DNA from: Terriglobus roseus
GTDB lineage: Bacteria > Acidobacteriota > Terriglobia > Terriglobales > Acidobacteriaceae
Direction of reading: 5' to 3'
Assembly (NCBI RefSeq): GCF_900105625.1
Contig: NZ_FNSD01000001.1
Span: forward strand, 3,844,001 to 3,908,000
Length of the DNA: 64,000 nucleotides
A program made the position numbers and the translations under genes. Under the pieces are notes generated by a model. The model saw only the letters and a program-made list of their open reading frames with translations. It was not told the DNA's origin and did not search any database. This document shows, one piece after another, positions 8,276-35,911 of this stretch. Numbering within the stretch: the first letter of the stretch is position 1; every line of letters begins with the position of its first letter.

Positions 8276-9367
8276 TCAGGCTTTGACGCCTACCTGCAGC
8301 TCTGGTCCCCAGCCCATCTCCAATGCAAAGGAATTCCAGAGCGCAATGGGCAGCGCGCCGCCGCTTGCCTGGTCGTGCCCGCCGCCAAAGGTACCGTCGG
8401 CGCCTGCGGGCGTGTGCGCGCGAAGGAAGTGTACGAGGTTCACGGACTTTGGTGCCCGTCCGGCGAAGTGGACGTAGCCGGGCCGGAAGCCGACGTTCAC
8501 GCCGAAGACAACGGCCTTCGGGAAGCGTGGCCGCCAGATCTGCGCCACCAGTGGATGCACCTGGCAGGGCGTGTCAATGCGAACGGCGATGAGATCCGCA
8601 CCAAGCTCTTCGCGCCAGCGGCTGGAAAAGCGGGGCGGACTTTTACAGGCGATGGCGAGTGCTGCCGCCACTTCTGCCTTGGCGGTGCGCAGACTTGCCA
8701 GTTCTGCCGAAGGTTCTGCCAGGGCCTGCTTCGGCGTATCGACTCGCAGCAGCAAATCCATGGCAACGGTAGCGTCCCCCGCAGCTGTGCGTCGCGGTGC
8801 GTTCAGCAGGCTGGTAAGGTCTTTCAGAGCTGTTGCTCCGAATCGCTTTTTGCCTTCCGCAAGTTCAGCGAAGGGCGCCTTATCGCCAAGGTCTGACAAT
8901 AGCGAGATGGCGGCCATCCACTCCAGATCGGCAGCAACTGCAGGCGCAACGGCTTGCGCGCACCACAGAGCCAGCAGGCCGCTGGTCGCGGTTGGCTCGG
9001 TGCCGTAGCTGGTCAGCAGCGTTGCGCCAGGCGGCGTGCCGAAGGGAGCGTGATGATCGATCAGCAGCGTGGCCACGCCAGGCAGGATGGTGTCAGGACG
9101 TGCGCCAAGATCAACGATCAGCAACGCCTCGGGAGCGAGTCTGCGCAGTCGCTCGTGGACGGTGGGCATCCAGGCGTTCTCAAACTTGCCTCGTGTCTCG
9201 ACCGTCACGTTGAGATAGCCAGCGGCATGGAGAGAGCGCAGCAGCAGGGCTCCCGCTGGCAGACCGTCCGCATCGGCATCGGTGAAGATGTGCATGCGTG
9301 TCGCAAGGCCGAGCGGCAGTACATTCAGAAACTGCTTGAAGAGAGTGCCGGCCTGCTCGCGATCCAT
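8276..9367 (-). CDS. DHH-family phosphoesterase (RecJ/NrnA-like)
   Basis: The protein has 363 residues. The DHH domain metal ligands are visible: DADAD (30-34), VDLGA with Asp86, and DHH (104-106). A C-terminal DHHA1-type motif GGGHDQASGG follows. Such proteins hydrolyse phosphodiester bonds in single-stranded DNA, nanoRNA or cyclic dinucleotides; which applies is not clear because no OB-fold or other extra domain is evident. ATG 9367 is used because the frame upstream to 9436 overlaps the preceding lipoprotein gene and reads as non-native. It follows that lipoprotein gene by 37 bases, probably in one transcript, and precedes the PQQ dehydrogenase by 38 bases. Confidence 0.85.
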   Translation of the reverse strand: MDREQAGTLFKQFLNVLPLGLATRMHIFTDADADGLPAGALLLRSLHAAGYLNVTVETRGKFENAWMPTVHERLRRLAPEALLIVDLGARPDTILPGVATLLIDHHAPFGTPPGATLLTSYGTEPTATSGLLALWCAQAVAPAVAADLEWMAAISLLSDLGDKAPFAELAEGKKRFGATALKDLTSLLNAPRRTAAGDATVAMDLLLRVDTPKQALAEPSAELASLRTAKAEVAAALAIACKSPPRFSSRWREELGADLIAVRIDTPCQVHPLVAQIWRPRFPKAVVFGVNVGFRPGYVHFAGRAPKSVNLVHFLRAHTPAGADGTFGGGHDQASGGALPIALWNSFALEMGWGPELQVGVKA

Positions 9368-9404
9368 CCTGCGTAGGATGCGCGTGCCACAAATTCCGAG
9401 AGCC

Positions 9405-9740
9405 CTAGCGGACGTCGAAGGTGATCTCGCGCACAAGACCGTCGCCGGTCGTCGTCCACATCACATTGGTCTCCAGCGGTGCGCCCACACCGGAGCGGGA
9501 GACGACAGTGTCCGTCTGGCGTACCGGACAGGTGCTCGCCTTAATGGAACCCGTGGCATCGACATGGATATTGGTCGAACGATCTTCGCTCAGACCCGTG
9601 CACAGGATGCGCACGTGACCGTGAAAATCCGCCGGCACTTCGATCTGCACCTTACGAGCACAGCCCATCAGTACAACGCCGGTCAGGGCAAACGCAATAC
9701 AAGCATGGCGTGAACGAAATCTGGAGCGGGGAAGCATCAT
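9405..9740 (-). CDS. Small putative lipoprotein
   Basis: The 111-residue product has an arginine-rich N-region, a hydrophobic core and a lipobox ending LMGC, so a mature N-terminal lipidated Cys is expected. The rest is a compact beta-rich domain with one further Cys pair (ILCTG, STCPV). ATG 9740 has AAAGGTG six bases upstream and is preferred over the in-frame ATG at 9761. It heads a likely operon with the DHH phosphoesterase. No function is recognised. Confidence 0.6.
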   Translation of the reverse strand: MMLPRSRFRSRHACIAFALTGVVLMGCARKVQIEVPADFHGHVRILCTGLSEDRSTNIHVDATGSIKASTCPVRQTDTVVSRSGVGAPLETNVMWTTTGDGLVREITFDVR

Positions 9741-9800
9741 CGGCACCTTTAACGCTATCATGGCGGCATTAAAACTTCGGGCGTATCAGTGGGGTGCAGT

Positions 9801-25853: not shown

Positions 25854-26825
25854 CTACGTGGCGCTGTAGGGTCTCGCGAAGTGTGTGGACCACTCCACGC
25901 GACGCTCATCGATCCATTCGATCTTGCCCTGCTTTGCATCGGCACGGAAGATCATGAAGGCGTTCGGGTCGTAGCGCGTCGCGGCGGTGACGGTGTGTTG
26001 CGGGCCGTAGGTGTGAGCGAAGTCGATCCACTTGTGCCAATGGCCAGCGATGACGATCTGGATGGTGTCTTTGTACTTCAGTAGCAGCGGGTGCAGGCCG
26101 AAGTCTTTAACCTCAGTCGGCGCCACGAGCCACAGCGGGTAGTGAATGAAGACCACCGTGGGCTTGCGTGCGGCGAACTGTGCCTCAGCCCACTGCAGCT
26201 GTTCCTCGCCCAGTGAGCCAAGGCGCTTATCGCCACCCGGCTCCCAGGTCTTACCCAGGAAGTTGTTGAGGATGACGAACCGGAAGCCGTTGTAGTCGAC
26301 TGCCGAGTAGGGATCGGACTTGAGCTTTTCCTTGAACAGGCGATTCGACATATCGATGGAGACGCCGGGCTTTGCGTGCTCGTCGTAATCGTGGTTGCCG
26401 AAGCCGAGATGCACCGGCGCGTGGAAGCCGTCGATGATCTTCTTTGCGATGTCGATGCGGGTTTCGTTCTTGAAGTAGAAGTCGTAATCGGCGGACGGAT
26501 AGTTGTGGAAGATGTCGCCCGGCATGAAGATGCTGTCGACTTTGCTGCCATCTTTGAAGCGGATGCCGTTGATGGTGTCACGGGCAGCGGCAAGGCGATC
26601 GTTTGCCTTCAGGATGCTTTCGTTGTCTTCGACTCCGTTCTCGGACCCGGGCTTGTAGAACTTGTCGATGACATGCGTGTCGGAGACGACGGCGAAGTGG
26701 AAGGGTTTGTCTGTCGCTGCGGTGGATGGTGCAGCGGCGGCGGTGGCTGGCAGCCACGAGGGCAGCATTGCTGCCCCCGCGGCCGTTACACCAAGTGCGT
26801 TGAAGTTGCGACGAGTGAGGATCAT
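25854..26825 (-). CDS. Tat-exported calcineurin-like metallophosphoesterase
   Basis: The protein has 323 residues. The twin-arginine signal is MILTRRNFNALGV, with hydrophobic core and an AAA cleavage region near 31. The two-metal phosphoesterase motifs follow: SDTHVID (Asp49, His51), MPGDIFHN, FGNHDYDEH, VVFIHYPLW and AGHWHKW. It hydrolyses a phosphomonoester or phosphodiester outside the cytoplasm; substrate unknown. Its ATG directly follows the stop of the TonB-dependent receptor (TAAATG), so the two are almost certainly one operon. A receptor-linked nutrient role, such as freeing phosphate before uptake, is an inference. Confidence 0.88.
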   Translation of the reverse strand: MILTRRNFNALGVTAAGAAMLPSWLPATAAAAPSTAATDKPFHFAVVSDTHVIDKFYKPGSENGVEDNESILKANDRLAAARDTINGIRFKDGSKVDSIFMPGDIFHNYPSADYDFYFKNETRIDIAKKIIDGFHAPVHLGFGNHDYDEHAKPGVSIDMSNRLFKEKLKSDPYSAVDYNGFRFVILNNFLGKTWEPGGDKRLGSLGEEQLQWAEAQFAARKPTVVFIHYPLWLVAPTEVKDFGLHPLLLKYKDTIQIVIAGHWHKWIDFAHTYGPQHTVTAATRYDPNAFMIFRADAKQGKIEWIDERRVEWSTHFARPYSAT

Positions 26826-29800
26826 TTAGAAGATGATCTTGCCGGCAAGCTGCAGCTGACGCGCGGGAGCGGCAGTTGTGATCTGACCGAAGCTGCTGCC
26901 GCCATACGTGCTGTTGGCTGCGCCGTAGTTCACCTTGTTGAGGACGTTGAAGGCCTCTGCGCGGAAGTCAAACTTCGACTGCTCGCTCCAGAGACCGAAT
27001 GCCTTGTGCAGGCCAAGATCGGCCTGGTAGAAGGCATCCGAGCGACCGAGGTTACGCGATGCTGTGCCGTTCGGGGTCGTTAGAGGAAGGCTGAAGGCTG
27101 CAGAGTTGAGGATGCCGTTGACCGAGGTCGCCGTCTTGGTGCGCGTGCTGCCGTAAATCGGCACACCCACGTTGCGGTTGGGGCGGTACGTGACGAGATC
27201 CGTGCCGTACAGGCCCGAGGAGCTCGACAGCGAGTAATTGATGTTGATGGGGGAGCCGCTGGTCATGGTGTTGATCAGCGTAAGCTGCCATCCACCAACA
27301 ACCTCGTTCAGGAAGTTGTTGCTGTTGGAGCCGAAGCGACGACCGTGACCATAGGGCAGGTCATAGACGACGGCAAGCGTGTCGGCCAGCGGCTGGTCGT
27401 AGCCCGAAGGACCGTAGCTCGCACCCGGGTTTGCGTAATCGACTCGGCTGTTATCGCCGTTCGCGGTCTCAAGGTGACCACCGGAAAGATCGAAGTCGCG
27501 GCTGTAGGTGAAGGAGTTGAGCAGGTACAGGCCCATGGCCGTGCGCTTCTCAACCTTTACCTGGAGCGAGTTGTAGTTGGTCGAACCGCCACCGAAGGCG
27601 ATTTCGATATCGCCGAAACCGGCAACCGGGCGACGGGAAGCCAGCGACGGGCAGCCAGTCGTTGTTGATGCATTGCAAGTAGCGGTAACGGGAGCGGGTG
27701 CGCCCTGGTTGTAATCGGCAAGGATCTGGTAGTGCGTTCCCTTGTTGCCGATGTAGCTCGCATCGAAGAGCCAGCCGTGGCCCAGGTCCTGCTGGACGCC
27801 GAGGAAGTAGCTCTGGAGATAGCCGGTCTTCGGATCCTTCGGGAGGTAACGCGAGGTGACGTTCGCGGGGTTGAAGTAAGCCGCTGAGGTCAATACGTTG
27901 CTGTAACCCTGCTGGGTCTGGCGGAAGCAGGCCGACTGCAGCTGTGTGTCATTGGCGCAAAGCAATGCCGCCGTAGGGTTCGAGGATTGAGTGATGGCTG
28001 CGTTCACGACGTTCGGACCGTTATAGGTGAGGTTGTTCTCACCACCGGCGCGGTTCCACTGGGTGTAACCGATACCGTAGCCGCCGCGCATGACCGTCTT
28101 CGGCGTCATCTGGTACGCGAAGCCGAGGCGGGGACCGACGTTGTTGTGCTTCGTGTTCACCAGCGCCTTGTTATAGGTGCTGCCGTTCGAGGCCTGGACC
28201 AGCGTCTTGGTGGTGGGGTCAAAGTTCGCCAGCTTGTTATCGCGCTCCCACTGCGGAGTCACGATCTCATAACGCAGACCGGCGTTGATCGTAAGCGAAG
28301 GGGTGACCTTGATGTCATCCTGCACGTACATGAAGTTGTAGCGTTGGCGCAGGTTCACGATCGCGTACGTGGTCAGCGAGTACGACGAGCGGTTGCCGAA
28401 GAGGAAGTCCGCCATGTTCCGTGCCTGCTGCAGCTGAGCGGCCAAGGTGGGTGCGCCTGCGGCAACCGTGGTGTTCGCCGGACTGCCGTTGGCCGAGTAA
28501 GTACCCGCGTAGTTGTCCTGGCCATAGCTCGGGTTGAAGTCATTCAGTTCCGTGTGGACTTCCTGGAACTCATAACCGAGCTTGACGCTGTGCTTACCCT
28601 TCAGGATGGTGTAGTTCACCTTCGGGTTGAAGATCATGGGGTTTTGGAACTGCGGATTCGACGACTGCGCACCGAACTGCGTGTAGCCGGTGACAGCCTG
28701 CGCATTCAGCGAACGGACGATGCGCGGATCGGTCGGGAGGCCGTCGGTGATACCGCTCTGCGTCAGGATGGAAGTCTGACCTACGTTGACCGGGAACTTC
28801 TGGCCCACGTTGCGCGACCAGCCGAAGCGGGCATCGAACAATTGATTGGGCGTGATGGCATACGTAACGCCGCCCGCGATGTTCTTGTTGCGGATGGTGA
28901 CGTTGCCGTTGCTGTTGCCACCGGCGAGGCCGGTGATGCCCGGCGGGTCAAAGATGTATCCGCGATGCTGGCTATACCGGGCGAAGATGGAGAGTTTCTG
29001 GTTGAAGGTATGGTCCAGGCGGAAATCGCCCTTGTCGTCATTGATGATGCCGCGGGGCGAGATGACGAAATTGTTGGACAGGCCAGCAGCATTCGGGGAG
29101 GGGAGCGCCGTGACAACATTACGAGCAAAGGTAGTCCACTGTGCCTGCGGAATGCTGCCGAGGAACGTCCGGCCCGAGATGGGATCGCGCAGCGGGATGG
29201 CGTTGGCAGGGTTCGAAGGGTCGTCGTTCAGGTAGAACAGACCATTCCGCTGGTTTGCCGTCAGGATCGTCGATGGCGTCGATGCGTTGTTGAAGATCTG
29301 GCGAACGGCTTCGTAATCACCGAAGAAGAAGGTGTGGTCCTTCCAGATGGGCCCGCCGATGGTGCCGCCGAACTGGTTCCGGATGAACTTGGGCTTGGTT
29401 GCGCCGGGCGCAAGGAAGGGACCGGTCGCGTTGAACACGGTGTTGCGGACGTAATCCCAGGCGCGGCCGTGGAACTGGTTCGTACCGCGACGGACTGCTG
29501 CGTTGATCACAGCGCCGACGTTACGGCCGAACTCTGCGGAGTAGTTGTTCGTCTCAACACGGAATTCGTCGATCGCATCGGGCGAGGGCGGAATGTTCTC
29601 GTTGGCGAAGCCCTGGTTCGATGTGCCGTAGTTGTTGTTGTCAAGACCGTCCAGCATGAAGTTGTTGAAGGCCGAACGGATACCGTTGACATTGAATGCG
29701 CCTTCACGGCTGCTGGTCGTGGTGTTTTCCAGGGCGGACTTGCGTACGCCGGTGGAGAGCAGCGTCAGGTCGGCATACGAACGGCCGTTGAGCGGCAGGT

Positions 29801-30233
29801 TCTCGACTTCGCGGGTGCCGATGAGCTGGCTGTGCGAGCTGTTCTCAGTCTCCAGCAGGGAGGCTGCGCTGGTCACGGTGACGGTGTCGTTCGCCGATCC
29901 GTTCTTCAGGCCCAGGTCGACGCGCTGGCGGGCATTTACGGAGAGTGAGAAGACGCCACTGTCGGACTTGGAGAAGCCGGCAGATTCGGCAGTGATCCGG
30001 TAGTCGCCGATACGGATGCTCGAGAACTCGAACTTGCCGTCCTTGTCGGCGGCCATCTGCTGAGTCACGCCGGTCTCGACGTTGGTCAGGGTTACGTTTG
30101 CACTTGGGATTGCCGCTCCCGAGGCGTCACGGACGTATCCGAGCACTGAGGCGGTATCGAACTGAGCACGCATGCTCAACGGACTTAACGACAGAACAAA
30201 GGGAATTGCGAGTAGTGCTGGGTGGCGTCTCAC
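26826..30233 (-). CDS. TonB-dependent receptor, Oar-like with carboxypeptidase-regulatory domain
   Basis: The 1135-residue outer-membrane protein has a signal peptide ending SMRAQ, then a carboxypeptidase-regulatory-like beta-sandwich (VRDASGAAIPSANVTLTN; FEFSSIRIGDYRITAES), a plug segment (VENLPLNGRSYADLTLLS), and a long beta-barrel with aromatic strand ends, closing LAGKIIF. The family imports large or complex substrates using TonB energy. GTG 30233 is chosen because GGAGAA lies about 6 bases upstream and the signal peptide starts there; an ATG 49 codons upstream gives an unlikely leader. The stop abuts the downstream phosphoesterase. It is divergent from a tail-anchored regulator. Confidence 0.9.
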   Translation of the reverse strand: MRRHPALLAIPFVLSLSPLSMRAQFDTASVLGYVRDASGAAIPSANVTLTNVETGVTQQMAADKDGKFEFSSIRIGDYRITAESAGFSKSDSGVFSLSVNARQRVDLGLKNGSANDTVTVTSAASLLETENSSHSQLIGTREVENLPLNGRSYADLTLLSTGVRKSALENTTTSSREGAFNVNGIRSAFNNFMLDGLDNNNYGTSNQGFANENIPPSPDAIDEFRVETNNYSAEFGRNVGAVINAAVRRGTNQFHGRAWDYVRNTVFNATGPFLAPGATKPKFIRNQFGGTIGGPIWKDHTFFFGDYEAVRQIFNNASTPSTILTANQRNGLFYLNDDPSNPANAIPLRDPISGRTFLGSIPQAQWTTFARNVVTALPSPNAAGLSNNFVISPRGIINDDKGDFRLDHTFNQKLSIFARYSQHRGYIFDPPGITGLAGGNSNGNVTIRNKNIAGGVTYAITPNQLFDARFGWSRNVGQKFPVNVGQTSILTQSGITDGLPTDPRIVRSLNAQAVTGYTQFGAQSSNPQFQNPMIFNPKVNYTILKGKHSVKLGYEFQEVHTELNDFNPSYGQDNYAGTYSANGSPANTTVAAGAPTLAAQLQQARNMADFLFGNRSSYSLTTYAIVNLRQRYNFMYVQDDIKVTPSLTINAGLRYEIVTPQWERDNKLANFDPTTKTLVQASNGSTYNKALVNTKHNNVGPRLGFAYQMTPKTVMRGGYGIGYTQWNRAGGENNLTYNGPNVVNAAITQSSNPTAALLCANDTQLQSACFRQTQQGYSNVLTSAAYFNPANVTSRYLPKDPKTGYLQSYFLGVQQDLGHGWLFDASYIGNKGTHYQILADYNQGAPAPVTATCNASTTTGCPSLASRRPVAGFGDIEIAFGGGSTNYNSLQVKVEKRTAMGLYLLNSFTYSRDFDLSGGHLETANGDNSRVDYANPGASYGPSGYDQPLADTLAVVYDLPYGHGRRFGSNSNNFLNEVVGGWQLTLINTMTSGSPININYSLSSSSGLYGTDLVTYRPNRNVGVPIYGSTRTKTATSVNGILNSAAFSLPLTTPNGTASRNLGRSDAFYQADLGLHKAFGLWSEQSKFDFRAEAFNVLNKVNYGAANSTYGGSSFGQITTAAPARQLQLAGKIIF

Positions 30234-30366
30234 TAGTTTCTCCAAAGAGGCAGCATGGCTGCGCACGGTCCGGGCTACGACGCTGCAACGGAGCGCAGCG
30301 CAAAGGACTTTCAGTTGCCCGGTGTAAACATGATGGCCGGGCAGGGCAAGGCATGTAAGGGGATAG

Positions 30367-30403
30367 CTGTAACCGGCCATTGCCGGTTACAGGGTGTACA
30401 CCC
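30367..30403. promoter_or_regulatory. Two adjacent inverted repeats in the receptor/regulator divergent promoter
   Basis: CTGTAACCGGC (30367-30377) pairs perfectly with GCCGGTTACAG (30382-30392) around CATT. Overlapping its edge, GGGTGTACACCC (30392-30403) is a separate perfect 12-bp palindrome. Both lie between the Oar-like receptor start (30233) and the winged-helix regulator start (30495). They are candidate operators, perhaps for the regulator itself; no footprinting-type evidence exists in the sequence. Confidence 0.5.
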
Positions 30404-30494
30404 CTGGACAGATGTTTTCGTTTCAACAGCTTGCGTGAAAAGAAAGCGCACCCACTTTACACAAAATTCACGAGACTGGCCTAGGGTTTTGCTT

Positions 30495-31178
30495 ATGCGA
30501 ACTCTTGAGCAAGACGCAGTGTCGCGCGATGCCCCCGAACACTCCGTAACGGCAGACGAGTGCGAGAGCTGGCGCGCCGCCCGCCTGGAGAACAATCCCG
30601 AAGTGGAGCTCTTCGCGCGCGAGGAGTGGAAGCTGGCGTGCCGCATCGCCACGAGCAAGGGCATGGCGAAATCTGAGCTCTTGCCACGCTTTTTGCTGCA
30701 TATCTGCGAGATGTCTCTGCGTGGCCGGAAAGAGGAGATCACCGAGCAGCGGATCGGCATGCTGATCTTTAATCGGCCCCTGGGCTACAACCCGGGCGAA
30801 GACAATATTGTGCGGAGTTACGCGCGGACCCTCCGCAAGCGGCTGGACGACTACTTCTTGCAGGATGGTCGGGATGAACCGCTGCGTATGACCATTCCGC
30901 GTGGCGGATACGTGCCGTTGTTTGCGCCGGCGCCGACCGGTGACCGGCGGAATGAAGATTCGGCTCCATCGATCGCCACGCCGCCGCAAAGCATCGTGGC
31001 GCCTTCCACTCGCGCAATGATCACGCGGGAGTCGCCCGGAACTGGAACGATTGCGGTCGTCGGAGATGCGGGCAACGACCGTCGCGTGTGGCTGGCGGCT
31101 GCGCTGGGCATGCTGTGCGGAGCCTTGATCGCCACCGCAATCTGGTTTGCTTCGGCCATGGCACACAGGGGCCAGTGA
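30495..31178 (+). CDS. Tail-anchored winged-helix regulator
   Basis: The 227-residue protein has a cytoplasmic N-terminal domain (about 35-145) with the pattern of acidobacterial winged-helix regulators: RIGMLIFNRPLGYNP, EDNIVRSYARTLRKRLDDYF, PLRMTIPRGGYVPLF. A low-complexity linker (about 146-195) and a single membrane span (about 199-221) ending MAHRGQ follow. There is no sensor domain. Such a layout suggests a membrane-bound transcription factor, perhaps released or signalled through partner proteins. It is divergent from the receptor/phosphoesterase operon and probably controls it; this is inferred from position. Confidence 0.6.
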   Translation: MRTLEQDAVSRDAPEHSVTADECESWRAARLENNPEVELFAREEWKLACRIATSKGMAKSELLPRFLLHICEMSLRGRKEEITEQRIGMLIFNRPLGYNPGEDNIVRSYARTLRKRLDDYFLQDGRDEPLRMTIPRGGYVPLFAPAPTGDRRNEDSAPSIATPPQSIVAPSTRAMITRESPGTGTIAVVGDAGNDRRVWLAAALGMLCGALIATAIWFASAMAHRGQ

Positions 31179-31220
31179 GACGAGCGGGCTGACCGGCTGC
31201 GGATGCCGGACGGAAACGCC

Positions 31221-31388
31221 CTAAAAGCGACTGACTACGAATGCGAAGAGCCCTGCGATACCAAGCAGAATGGTCGCCAGTGTGCCGGAGATGTAATAGG
31301 CGGCGCGGCGTTCCTGGCCTGCCTTTGGCCGTGTGATGCCTACGCTCCAGATGAAACTCTCGCTCACGATATCGGTTAGGCTTCTCAT
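31221..31388 (-). CDS. 55-residue single-span membrane protein
   Basis: The frame encodes MRSLTDIVSESFIWSVGITR, a basic segment (PKAGQERRAAYYISG), then one membrane span and VVSRF. A perfect AGGAGG lies 9 bases before ATG 31388, which argues for real translation despite the size. It is convergent with the winged-helix regulator gene and divergent from the AraC gene. Function unknown. Confidence 0.55.
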   Translation of the reverse strand: MRSLTDIVSESFIWSVGITRPKAGQERRAAYYISGTLATILLGIAGLFAFVVSRF

Positions 31389-31470: not shown

Positions 31471-32394
31471 ATGGTGAAGAAAGACACGGACGATGAGGGA
31501 TCTTCGCAGCGCGTCACAGTGCTTCGTAACGCCACCCTTGTTCCTCTGCTCGGCTCGCAGGAGGATCGCGATGCGCCGCGACGGCAGCCGTGGAAGGGTG
31601 TCGTCCTGGAGCGGCACGTCGTTCAGGCCGGCGAAATTCCAGAGCATGAGCACCCTACGTTGTGTCTCCACCTGCAACTCACCGGCACGCGAGATTTTGA
31701 GTGGTGGCAGGATGGTAAGAATGCCGTCGAGCGCACCGAGCCCGGGTCGCTGATCGTCATTCCACCCGGAACACGGGACCGTCTCCGATGGCAGGGCTGT
31801 TCCGAGCGGCTGATTCTCTCGATCCAGAACGATGCGATGGAAGAGATCGCTATCCAGCTCGGAGCACAACATGCCCTGGAGATCGTCGGCGGATGGTCGC
31901 TGCACAGCGCCTCGCTGCGGCTGTTACTTGCGGAGATGGGCAGGGAAGCGCAGGAGAGCTGGCCGCTTGGGAGCCTGTATGCCGATCTGCTCGCCCTTGG
32001 CCTGCAGACCAACCTGATCCGCAACCATGCCACACAGCCGATGGCTCTGCCCGTGCCAAAAGGTGGACTGAGCCTGCCACGCCTGAAGCAGGCGATGGAG
32101 TACATCTCGGACAATCTTGCGGAAGATATCGGCCTGGAAGAGATCGCGACCGCGATGGGATTAAGCGCTTCGCACTTTGCGCATGAGTTCCGAAGCTCGA
32201 CCGGCGCAACGCCGTATCAGTACCTGCTGCAACAGCGGTTGCAGCGGGCCAGGAGCCTGCTGATGAGTACAACCTTGCCGGTCCAAAATGTCAGCGCTCT
32301 CACGGGCTTTCAATATCCTGCGAACTTTGTGCGGACCTTCCGCCAGCGCATCGGCCAGTCACCGGAAGCCTGGCGCAGGGAGCATCGCTCGTAG
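31471..32394 (+). CDS. AraC-family transcriptional regulator with cupin sensor
   Basis: The 307-residue protein has an N-terminal cupin-like sensor (about 40-115; EIPEHEHPTLCLHLQL and GSLIVIPPGTRDRLRW) and a C-terminal AraC double helix-turn-helix: first IATAMGLSASHFAHEFRSST, then VQNVSALTGFQYPANFVRTF followed by GQSPEAWRR. It likely activates nearby genes in response to a small molecule. It has no strong ribosome site at ATG 31471. Targets are not evident; the small membrane protein is divergent from it. Confidence 0.88.
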   Translation: MVKKDTDDEGSSQRVTVLRNATLVPLLGSQEDRDAPRRQPWKGVVLERHVVQAGEIPEHEHPTLCLHLQLTGTRDFEWWQDGKNAVERTEPGSLIVIPPGTRDRLRWQGCSERLILSIQNDAMEEIAIQLGAQHALEIVGGWSLHSASLRLLLAEMGREAQESWPLGSLYADLLALGLQTNLIRNHATQPMALPVPKGGLSLPRLKQAMEYISDNLAEDIGLEEIATAMGLSASHFAHEFRSSTGATPYQYLLQQRLQRARSLLMSTTLPVQNVSALTGFQYPANFVRTFRQRIGQSPEAWRREHRS

Positions 32395-33113: not shown

Positions 33114-33887
33114 ATGACGTCCCGGTTGTTCTGTCGACATATCGCAGCGCTCTGCTTCGCTGCGTCCTTTGCCTGCGCGCAGCAGGCGCCAGTGATTGTG
33201 CAACCGGGCGCTCCAGGGCAGCCCAGCAAGACCCTCACTGAGATGACTGCCGTTTCCGTCGCGCGTCCGCCGTCGGAGGCGGATGTCCGCTTTATGCAGG
33301 ACATGATCATGCACCATGGCCAGGCTGTGGAGATGACCGAGCTGCTGAAGACACGCACCAGCAATCCGGAAGTGAAGGAACTGGGGCGCAAGATCGATGT
33401 CTCGCAGAGCGATGAGATCCGCTGGATGAAACAGTGGCTGTCCGAGCGCGGCATCGCGCCGGAGACGATGGACTCCATGCCCGGCATGGATCATTCGCCG
33501 ATGGCTGGCATGGATCATTCCCAGATGGCGGGTATGGATCACGGCAGCATGGCCGGCATGGACCACTCGAACATGGCTGGCATGGCTCCCACAACCAAGG
33601 CGGCAGCGTCCGGACCTGATCCGATGGATGTGGCCATGATGCCCGGCATGTTGACACCACGACAGATGGTGACGCTGCGGCAGTCGAATGGAGAGACGTT
33701 CGACAGACTCTTTCTCACAGGGATGATCCAGCACCATAGCGGCGCGCTACTGATGGTGAAGCAGCTTTTCGCCAGTCCCGGCGCAGGCCAGGACCCTCAA
33801 CTCTTCGACTTTGCAAATGACGTGGATAACACGCAGCTTGCGGAAATCGACATCATGAAGGGCATTCTCCGAAAGGTAAATCCATGA
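33114..33887 (+). CDS. DUF305 protein with His/Met repeat
   Basis: The 257-residue exported protein has a signal peptide (cleavage near CAQQ) and two DUF305 ferritin-like halves, each with a His pair: [12 protein letters not shown] (His67, His68) and [10 protein letters not shown] (about 205). Between them four tandem 8-residue units [32 protein letters not shown] (33483-33578) form a His/Met/Asp-rich linker that could bind copper or another soft metal. DUF305 genes often accompany copper-resistance loci, but no known copper gene is adjacent. The stop overlaps the next ATG (ATGA), so the LVIVD-like gene is translationally coupled. Confidence 0.85.
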
Positions 33888-35911
33888 ACCGGTTTGATCG
33901 TCTTTCCACGCTTCGCGTCTTCGCAGCGGCTGCTGCGGTGCTCGCAGGCCTTCCGTCCCACGCGCAGATGGATCATGACAAACCGTCGACAGTGGCGCCG
34001 ACCTCCACCGTCTTTGTGAACCCGCGCGCCGTGGACGATCCACGCATCGGTCTGAAGGCGGGCCTGTACAACGCGGGTGTTGCGGCGAAGGGGTTGGAGA
34101 TGATCACAACCATCGCCAAGCCGGCGGGTTTCGCGCCGGACGAGTCGAAGATTGCCGCGTGGGAGGCAGCTCCGGCTCCGACGCCACCCAAGCCCGGCCA
34201 GCCGCGCGTTGCTCCGGTGCCGGCCCCGTATGGCACCACCAACTCTGACCTGGCGTTTCAGGGCAAGTACGTCTTTGTGGGCAACTACTACGGTGTCAAC
34301 ACCTATGACGCCAGCGATCCGGCCAAGACCAAGCTGGTGACCAGCATGGTGTGTCCCGGCGGTCAGGGTGATGTTTCTGTCTACGGCCACCTGATGTTCA
34401 TGAGCGTTGAAGCAGCGAACGGCCGCGTGGATTGCGGCGTGCAGGGCTTCGCTTCGATGGAAGCAGCGGCTGCTGCTGCTGCGGCTGCTGCCGCCGCAGC
34501 TCCTCCACCCCCGCCCCGTGCGGAAGGTGCTCCACCGGCGGCGCGTCCCACGCCTCCTCCTGCACCGGCGGAAAAGGACCGCGTGCGTGGCATCCGCATC
34601 TTCGACATTACCGACGTGACCAAGCCTCGCCAGATTGCCGACGTGCAGACCTGCCGTGGGTCGCATACCCATACTTTGCTGGTCGATCCGAAGGATAAGG
34701 ACAATATCTACGTCTACATCTCCGGCTCGGCCGGAGTGCGGGACGAAAAGGAACTGCCTGGCTGCAGCGGCGCAGACCCGACCGTGAACCCGGATACGGC
34801 GCTGTTCACCATCGTGGTGATCAAGGTGCCGCTGGCGCATCCTGAGCTGGCGAAGATCGTCAGCAGCCCACGCATCTTTACCGATCCCGAAACCGGCGAC
34901 ATGAATGGCTTGTGGAAGGGTGGCAAGCATGGCGACGGCACACAGACCACCAGCGCAACGCGTGGCTGCCATGACATCACGGTGTACTCCGCCTATCACC
35001 TGGCGGCGGGCGCCTGCTCCGGCAACGGCATTCTGCTCGACATCAGTGACCCGGTGAACCCGAAGCGGCTGGACGCTGTCAGCGATCCGAACTATGCGTT
35101 CTGGCATTCGGCGAACTTCAGCAACGACGGTAAAGCTATTCTCTTCAGCGACGAGTGGGGCGGAGGCGGTCAGCCGCGCTGCCGTGCGACCGATCCCATG
35201 AACTGGGGTGCGGATGCCATCTTCAAGCTGGACGGCAACAACAAGATGACCCTGCAGTCGTACTACAAGATGCCGGCGGCGCAGACGGAGCAGGAAAACT
35301 GCGTGGCGCATAACGGGTCGGAGATTCCGGTCCCCGGCCGTGCGTTGCACGTGCAGAGCTGGTACCAGGGCGGCATCTCGATTGTGGACTGGACCGATCC
35401 TGCGCATCCCGTGGAGATCGGCTACTACGACCGCGGACCCATCAACGGCAACAAGTTTGCCATGGGCGGCCAGTGGTCGACGTACTGGTACAACGGCTAC
35501 ATCTACGGCTCGGAGATCGCGCGAGGCCTGGATGTGATGAAGCTCGTGCCGACCGAGTTCATGACGCAGAACGAGATCGACGCAGCCAACCAGATCAAAT
35601 TCACGGAGCTGAATGTGCAGAACCAGCCACAGATCGTGTGGCCTGCAACCTTCATCACGGCGAAGGCCTATCTGGATCAACTGGGACGCGGCGATAGTCT
35701 GCCCGCAGCCAAAATCGCGTCCCTACGCAGCGCCATCGAAAAGGCAGCTACCTCGAAGAAGGATGCAGCCAAGCTGAAGTCCATGGCACCGGAACTGGAG
35801 AAGGCGGCCACAACCGCAAAGACACCAGCCGACGCGAAACGCCTGCACGGCCTGGCAGAGATCATGACCAAGGGCGGCGATGCTGCTCCCATGTCAATCG
35901 CCAGCCTGTAA
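33884..35911 (+). CDS. Secreted LVIVD-like beta-propeller protein
   Basis: The 675-residue product has a signal peptide (cleavage near SHAQMDH) and propeller-like repeats ([61 protein letters not shown]) as in LVIVD-repeat surface proteins. A low-complexity insert of 13 Ala then 5 Pro (34463-34516) sits between blades, and the C-terminus is a helical [15 protein letters not shown] tail. The gene is coupled to DUF305 by an ATGA overlap. The role is unknown; the operon points to an envelope or metal-linked function. Confidence 0.75.

What the first reader, a model, noticed from the sequence alone, without database searches (positions are those of the whole stretch)
25854..31178. Oar-like receptor abutting a Tat phosphoesterase, facing a tail-anchored regulator
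The receptor and phosphoesterase join as TAA-ATG and run opposite to a winged-helix regulator that ends in a single membrane span and has no sensor domain. Two inverted repeats (30367-30392 and 30392-30403) sit in the shared promoter. This looks like a self-contained uptake module whose regulator sits in the membrane. A phosphate-scavenging role is inferred only from the enzyme families.
Basis: partly seen in the sequence, partly recalled or inferred. Interest (0 to 1): 0.6.

Follow-up and report, generated by a model that had tools for sequence, protein, structure and literature searches.

The report
Receptor-linked membrane regulator without its sensor
In a soil acidobacterium, an outer-membrane import gene and a phosphate-cutting enzyme gene face a membrane-bound gene switch; the switch belongs to a large family, not found described, that normally carries an outside-facing domain, and this copy has lost that domain but kept its DNA-binding part and its probable target site.

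Summary
In detail: receptor and Tat phosphoesterase abut as TAA-ATG, face a 227-aa regulator ending in one membrane helix, and both inverted repeats are exact. The regulator is the larger story. It has no Pfam match. 79 relatives are 420-549 aa: winged helix, one span, and a roughly 250-residue C-terminal domain with a BcsB-like predicted fold. 65 of 79 lie divergent from an Oar-like receptor within 900 bp. Their promoters share a palindrome, core GGTGTATACACC; held-out sites are about 50-fold denser there than elsewhere, in 36 of 65 loci. Eight other distinct loci carry the trio with a full-length regulator. In the window's receptor clade the three other loci have no regulator at the receptor promoter and no operator. 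So this copy looks like a sensorless, tail-anchored derivative, perhaps on the way to loss. Five related operons add a phosphoinositide phospholipase C, so inositol phosphates are a better guess than phosphate. Against: several trio promoters with a regulator score low too. No binding or expression data exist.

The parts
30495..31178 (+). Tail-anchored regulator, 227 aa: OmpR-type winged helix plus one C-terminal membrane span, no periplasmic domain
   Evidence: short against 79 relatives of 420-549 aa and against 40 of 40 other rows found with the short protein itself (open frames 408-560 aa)
30618..30932 (+). Winged-helix domain, residues 42-146; best structure rows SaeR DNA-binding domain (Z 6.9), E. 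coli CadC DNA-binding domain further down (Z 5.3)
   Evidence: residues invariant in the family alignments are present
31077..31169 (+). C-terminal membrane helix, residues 195-225
   Evidence: model; mean hydropathy 2.2 over 19 residues
26826..30233 (-). Oar-like TonB-dependent receptor (CarboxypepD_reg, plug, PF25183 barrel), 1135 aa from GTG 30233
   Evidence: domains; start re-assigned by eye
25854..26825 (-). Twin-arginine calcineurin-like phosphoesterase, 323 aa; motifs DxH, GD, GNHD, H and GHxH present
   Evidence: PF00149, 5.1e-11; alignment of 15 rows
30234..30494 (.). Shared intergenic promoter region, 261 bp
30389..30408 (.). Family-type operator, core palindrome GGGTGTACACCC at 30392-30403; best-scoring site in the 64-kb window (15.5; 14.7 with the window left out of training)
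30367..30392 (.). Perfect 26-bp inverted repeat; its centre is 19 bp from the operator centre, near the 21-23 bp spacing of paired operators in relatives
   Evidence: role unknown
30317..30336 (.). Weaker operator-like site (score 11.5)

Best explanation
The locus is a TonB-receptor/phosphoesterase operon controlled by a divergent, membrane-anchored one-component regulator of a large acidobacterial family that I did not find described. In the normal form, an N-terminal OmpR-type winged helix binds palindromic operators, often paired, between regulator and receptor genes; a single span anchors it; and a C-terminal, presumably periplasmic alpha/beta domain with the predicted fold of the BcsB C-terminal domain senses something linked to the imported compound. 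In the window that domain is gone, while the DNA-binding domain, the membrane anchor and one good operator remain. The most likely behaviour is signal-independent regulation of its own promoter region by a tail-anchored protein, much as a laboratory version of VtrA (N-terminal domain plus span) still activates its target promoter. Shown here by computation: architecture, linkage, operator enrichment, missing domain. Inferred: DNA binding, direction of regulation, signal, and substrate (phospho-inositol compounds).
For: 65 of 79 relatives lie divergent from a receptor within 900 bp, 4 more tandem and 1 convergent, against about 64 receptors found in the 4.8-Mb own genome. Distances of regulators and receptors correlate (Mantel r 0.64, 0 of 1000 permutations, 59 pairs), and the window's eight nearest loci are the same by regulator and by receptor. 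Motif search on 66 promoters gave a log-likelihood of 231 against 34-46 in 8 resampled sets. Held-out test: 46 sites in 30.2 kb of promoters against 25 in 830 kb elsewhere, 36 of 65 loci with a site; 18 of 23 close site pairs lie 21-23 bp apart. The window site is top of 64 kb with the window left out of training. Three receptor-phosphoesterase loci without a regulator at the receptor promoter score 2.5, 2.4 and 1.5. Full-length model: 356 of 533 residues at pLDDT 90 or more; BcsB Z 12.1, 166 residues, 3.3 A. VtrA precedent: PMC5693285, passages read.
Against: No binding or expression data. 15 of the 66 promoters have no motif site above 6. Of the seven genome contigs trio loci only L101 scores high (16.1); L107 8.8, L112 8.4, L110 5.4, L105 4.9, L102 2.6, L103 -0.8, so L102 and L103, which have regulators, score no better than loci without one. 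They share CACCCC-rich repeats seen only by eye. Own-genome paralogue promoters: L013 -4.3, L015 -2.0, L014 0.0, L017 4.5, L018 5.4, L020 11.0. The short protein could be decaying. In the VtrA paper the same N-TM version did not restore cytotoxicity. A sensor role for the C-terminal domain rests on topology and fold alone.
Confidence: 0.55

Rival explanations
1. The regulator is a decaying remnant. Receptor and phosphoesterase are expressed without it, as in their closest relatives, and the short protein has little or no function.
For: In the receptor tree the window groups with L092, L096 and L097 (100/99), all without a regulator at the receptor promoter and without operator; the closest, L092 (83% receptor identity), has no regulator match in its 17 kb beyond chance (best E 0.6). 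Another regulator in that same relative's genome (L208) is frameshifted.
Against: Winged-helix residues invariant in the family are present, the domain is 72% identical to that of L101 over 111 columns, the operator scores high, and the ORF ends after a complete membrane span rather than inside a domain.
Confidence: 0.27
2. A self-contained phosphate-scavenging module induced by phosphate limitation.
For: Tat-type phosphoesterase gene directly behind a receptor gene.
Against: Five related operons add a phosphoinositide phospholipase C. In the own genome a PI-PLC sits with a myo-inositol oxygenase and another regulator-receptor pair. The same regulator family serves receptors next to GH92 mannosidases and other enzymes. 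No Pho-box search was made.
Confidence: 0.1
3. The tail-anchored DNA-binding protein takes its signal from a separate membrane partner, for example by pairing with a full-length paralogue, as co-component systems of the ToxR/ToxS or VtrA/VtrC kind do.
For: Eleven other family members in the same genome, most with a C-terminal domain after the span; VtrA acts as an oligomer (PMC5693285, passages).
Against: No match to the family's C-terminal domain in the window; no evidence of hetero-pairing.
Confidence: 0.08

Closest known systems
ToxR/CadC-like membrane-bound one-component regulators (E. coli CadC, V. cholerae ToxR, V. parahaemolyticus VtrA)
   Same: N-terminal OmpR-type winged helix, single span, in relatives a C-terminal domain beyond the span; structure look lists the CadC DNA-binding domain 5ju7 at Z 5.3
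   Different: No Pfam hit for the window regulator and no family shared by two or more of 79 relatives; C-terminal domain aligns with BcsB; linked to TonB receptors; the window copy has no such domain
VtrA N-TM version of V. parahaemolyticus (PMC5693285)
   Same: Winged helix plus span without C-terminal domain; in that paper it induced the vtrB promoter as the full protein did, while the domain alone did not (passages read)
   Different: A laboratory construct, and it did not restore cytotoxicity; the window protein is natural, in another family with different operators
BcsB, periplasmic subunit of cellulose synthase, C-terminal domain
   Same: Predicted fold of the relatives' C-terminal domain: Z 12.1, 166 residues, 3.3 A, 11% identity; next rows are N-terminal domains of GH67, GH84 and GH115 enzymes and an S-layer anchoring domain
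   Different: No sequence match in solved structures; BcsB is not a regulator; a shared fold proves no sugar binding
Calcium-dependent phosphoinositide phospholipase C (PF16670) operons
   Same: Five loci with a homologous receptor-phosphoesterase pair carry it directly downstream
   Different: Absent from the window operon; the own-genome copy lies in another regulator-receptor cluster with MIOX and GH92

Membership tests
ToxR/CadC-like membrane one-component regulator | OmpR/PhoB-type winged-helix DNA-binding domain at the N-terminus | tested here: met
   By fold, with middling scores: window model aligns with SaeR (6.9), RRA (6.2), RitR (5.8) and CadC (5.3) DNA-binding domains, but ScpB domains lie among them (5.5-5.7). 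By sequence: no Pfam hit; own paralogue L015:57-1358 passes the PF00486 cut-off (29.3 against 26.2 bits).
ToxR/CadC-like membrane one-component regulator | Single transmembrane span after the DNA-binding domain | tested here: met
   Hydropathy and modelled helix 195-225; membrane insertion not shown
ToxR/CadC-like membrane one-component regulator | C-terminal periplasmic sensor domain | tested here: not met
   The window protein stops after the span and the window has no match to the relatives' domain. Relatives do have one.
ToxR/CadC-like membrane one-component regulator | Binds and regulates nearby promoters | not testable with these tools
   Operator enrichment supports it; no binding assay
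The receptor-linked acidobacterial regulator family described here | Conserved winged helix, divergent TonB receptor, palindromic operator | tested here: met
The receptor-linked acidobacterial regulator family described here | C-terminal domain after the span | tested here: not met
Oar-like TonB-dependent receptor | CarboxypepD_reg domain, plug, large beta-barrel | tested here: met
   PF13620 (62.9 bits), PF25183 (5.8e-221); plug PF07715 just under its cut-off, 21.6 against 23.9 bits. TonB box not tested.
Tat-exported calcineurin-like phosphoesterase | Twin-arginine signal and metal-binding motifs | tested here: met
   RR at the N-terminus in 15 of 15 aligned rows (L098 and L112 are one locus) and motifs read from the same alignment; export and activity not shown
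Pho-type phosphate starvation module | Pho-box or phosphate response | not tested
   No Pho-box search or expression data

The most novel reading that the evidence does not exclude
Acidobacteriaceae control many of their TonB-dependent receptors with a dedicated family of membrane-anchored one-component regulators (winged helix and C-terminal domain both without a Pfam model, BcsB-like predicted sensor fold, palindromic operators often paired 21-23 bp apart). These would take the place that sigma/anti-sigma pairs or hybrid two-component sensors hold elsewhere. The window holds a natural sensorless, tail-anchored member caught between regulated and regulator-free versions of the same operon.
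Probability: 0.55. Interest if true: 0.72.

Novelty: new variant of a known kind. Interest (0 to 1): 0.6.

Why it matters
The own genome carries about 64 receptors of this class, and acidobacteria are abundant in soil, yet the literature searched here did not describe how such receptors are switched on. A regulator family that sits next to the receptors and has a recognisable operator gives a way to predict which receptors are regulated and how, and neighbouring enzymes then suggest substrates. The sensorless copy is a natural experiment on whether such regulators need their sensor.

Tried and rejected
Tried without result: a viral-contig scan for the regulator (0 relatives among 5 stretches). 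Sequence search of solved structures with the 79-row regulator profile (0 hits at E 1). Sigma-70 promoter scan of 30150-31350 (0 found). Foldseek with the window model (best E 1.1) and with the full-length model (best E 0.008, none at 0.001). Search for a remnant of the missing domain in the window (none at E 1).

Considered and not adopted: that the regulator was captured from an L101-like locus after the clade had lost it. The regulator tree puts it beside L101 (99/87, 95/88) while the receptor tree does not, but the AU test does not reject the full-length regulators as a clade without the window (p 0.224 and 0.155). That the truncation is unique: not claimed. The genome-contig scan keeps the best 80 of 130 against a full-length query, so it is biased against short forms. 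Searches with the short protein itself are not: 40 of 40 other rows have open frames of 408-560 aa (one with a stop inside the match) and 9 of 9 have 466-554 (the sets overlap). At phylum level (at most six candidates scored per genome) some rows are shorter. I fetched six of those and left out others, among them two under 225 aa with stops inside. Of the six, L204:5614-6282 is 222 aa with a marginal hydrophobic tail and no receptor match in its 12 kb; L208 is frameshifted; the other four run on for 289-372 aa.

Literature: searches listed no paper that describes this regulator family or its link to receptors, judged by titles and abstract starts and by passages of two papers. The library holds open-licence papers only.

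Limits: genes were called as longest non-overlapping ORFs, so starts are approximate. The 79 loci contain near-duplicates (L164 and L166 have identical winged helices), some of which may fall on both sides of the held-out split, and the motif seed came from words found in the whole set. L098 and L112 are the same locus, as are L101 and L188, judged by equal contig lengths and coordinates. My regulator queries began one codon late (30498); and later use 30495.
Full report
What is there. Receptor and phosphoesterase join as TAA-ATG. The regulator is 30495-31178, 227 aa, with one C-terminal span. The receptor most likely starts at GTG 30233 and not at 30380, so both repeats lie in a 261-bp intergenic region (read by eye). 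The 26-bp repeat is beyond chance (3 of 1000 resampled promoters with an arm of 10 or more); the 12-bp palindrome by itself is not (88 of 1000).

The regulator is one of a family. It has no Pfam or NCBIfam match. The own genome has 12 members by a search with the window protein. In their surroundings, 7 of the 12 stand directly beside a receptor of class PF25183 (the window and L013, L014, the second member in L015, L017, L018, L020), 2 more have a receptor one or two genes away (the first member in L015, and L019), and 3 (L016, L021, L022) have none in the 15-19 kb read. The genome has about 64 such receptors: 73 match rows, nine of which I take as further pieces of a gene; 65 of 91 candidates were scored, so this is a lower bound.

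A genome-contig scan with ten full-length relatives gave 79 loci, the best of 130 confirmed; the titles name Acidobacteriota or an unnamed bacterium. The 79 regulators are 420-549 aa, and 76 show one central span by a simple hydropathy rule that missed it in L149, L154 and L173. 65 of 79 are divergent from a receptor within 900 bp, 4 tandem, 1 convergent, and 9 have no receptor that close, 2 of these at a contig edge. Regulator and receptor distances correlate (r 0.64, 0 of 1000 permutations, 59 pairs with long enough receptors); shared species history contributes to this. No Pfam family matches more than one of 79 members at E 0.01. In 247 genomes drawn from the phylum, 35 have a match at E 1e-10, with at most six candidates scored per genome.

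Architecture. The AlphaFold2 model of L112's regulator has confident blocks for a winged helix (about 79-199), a span (248-273) and an alpha/beta domain (284-530). The last aligns with the C-terminal domain of BcsB (Z 12.1, 166 residues, 3.3 A) and then with N-terminal domains of GH67, GH84 and GH115 enzymes (Z 7-9); Foldseek alone gave E 0.008 at best. The window protein was modelled by itself: its winged helix aligns with SaeR (Z 6.9) and CadC (Z 5.3) DNA-binding domains, with ScpB domains at 5.5-5.7 between them. These are middling scores.

Truncation. The window copy ends right after the span, and the domain that relatives have is not found in the window. Searches made with the short protein itself found only longer relatives: 40 of 40 other rows in 150 family genomes (open frames 408-560 aa) and 9 of 9 in 19 genus genomes (466-554 aa); the sets overlap. 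A more distant short member exists (L204, 222 aa, marginal tail).

Operator. From 65 divergent promoters plus the window, words such as GTATACAC and GTTTACCC were enriched, and a palindromic motif, core GGTGTATACACC, emerged with log-likelihood 231 against 34-46 in eight resampled sets. Trained on one half and tested on the other, sites above 12 number 46 in 30.2 kb of promoters and 25 in 830 kb elsewhere, about 50-fold; 36 of 65 loci have one. Of 23 close site pairs, 18 are 21-23 bp apart, two turns of the helix. In the own genome its 15-bp core occurs exactly once, with three sites at two mismatches. Against this: 15 of 66 promoters have no site above 6. Most other trio promoters score low (L101 16.1, L107 8.8, L112 8.4, L110 5.4, L105 4.9, L102 2.6, L103 -0.8; L099 8.0), although by eye they share CACCCC repeats. 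Five of six own-genome paralogue promoters tested score 5.4 or less.

The trio. A search with the phosphoesterase in 150 family genomes found 9 places in 8 genomes, the window included. I fetched the eight others. Five have a homologous receptor beside the phosphoesterase (L092, L096, L097, L098, L099); three (L093, L094, L095) do not (in L094 my ORF calling missed the phosphoesterase too). Of the five, two have a divergent full-length regulator (L098, L099). In the 79 loci, seven places show the trio, L112 being the same locus as L098. So there are eight distinct other trio loci. L099's receptor is of a different clade (29% identity).

History. In the receptor tree the window groups with L092, L096 and L097 (100/99), which have no regulator at the receptor promoter and no operator (best scores 2.5, 2.4, 1.5); seven loci with full-length regulators form a neighbouring clade (99/100), with L110 outside both. 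L096 does have a family member on the far side of its operon, one gene beyond the PI-PLC. The phosphoesterase tree agrees for L092 but puts L096 with the full-regulator loci (100/99), so the operon's parts have not all travelled together. The window regulator groups with that of L101 (99/87; 95/88). Vertical descent with several losses is not rejected (AU p 0.224).

Substrate. All 15 aligned phosphoesterase rows keep the twin-arginine signal and the metal motifs. In five loci (L092, L096, L102, L103, L105) the next gene is a PF16670 phosphoinositide phospholipase C; it is not seen in L097, L099, L107, L110 or L112, and L101 has too little sequence to tell. A search of the own genome with L092's PF16670 protein found one match, in a cluster with another regulator-receptor pair, a GH92 mannosidase and a myo-inositol oxygenase. 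Elsewhere in the family, genes just downstream of the receptor are varied: of 31 scanned (38 found, the 7 phosphoesterases left out), 4 GH92, 3 PF04185 phosphoesterases, 3 PHP and others. So the regulator family is general and the cargo specific; phospho-inositol compounds are my inference for this operon.

Mechanism. Shown by computation: architecture, linkage, operator enrichment, missing C-terminal domain. Inferred: binding, sign of regulation, signal. A functional precedent in print is VtrA: its N-terminal domain plus span induced the vtrB promoter as the full protein did, the domain alone did not, and the response to bile needed the C-terminal domain; the same short version did not restore cytotoxicity (PMC5693285, abstract and passages). 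I therefore expect signal-independent regulation, with decay as the main rival.

Literature. Eight searches listed nothing on this family; of the papers listed I saw passages of PMC3174227 (paralogue groups, no such link in the passages shown) and PMC5693285, and of the rest only titles and abstract starts.

Noticed in passing
L017 (own genome C1:959000-978000): Cluster with a regulator-receptor pair, GH92 mannosidase, PF16670 phosphoinositide phospholipase C, myo-inositol oxygenase, LacI regulator and sugar transporter: looks like use of phosphoinositide or GPI-type glycans.
   Followed up: partly
L208:5900-7172: In the window's nearest receptor relative (G095) a family regulator near a receptor operon has its winged helix in another frame than its span and C-terminal domain: frameshift or sequencing error.
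   Followed up: partly
L204:5614-6282: A second short family member, 222 aa, with a marginal hydrophobic tail and no receptor match in 12 kb.
   Followed up: partly
L015:57-1358 and 8306-9763: Two family regulators and two receptors within 13.3 kb of the own genome; the first regulator passes the Pfam cut-off for OmpR-type winged helices.
   Followed up: no
window 31471-32394: AraC-type regulator downstream of the tail-anchored regulator; relation to the module unknown.
   Followed up: no
window 33114-35911: A DUF305 protein gene overlaps by 4 bp with a large gene whose product has a weak LVIVD-repeat match under the cut-off, a possible secreted pair.
   Followed up: no
L209:4109-7348: Two adjacent genes with the same winged helix in another acidobacterial family, 372 and 704 aa, neither with a span by the simple hydropathy rule.
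   Followed up: no
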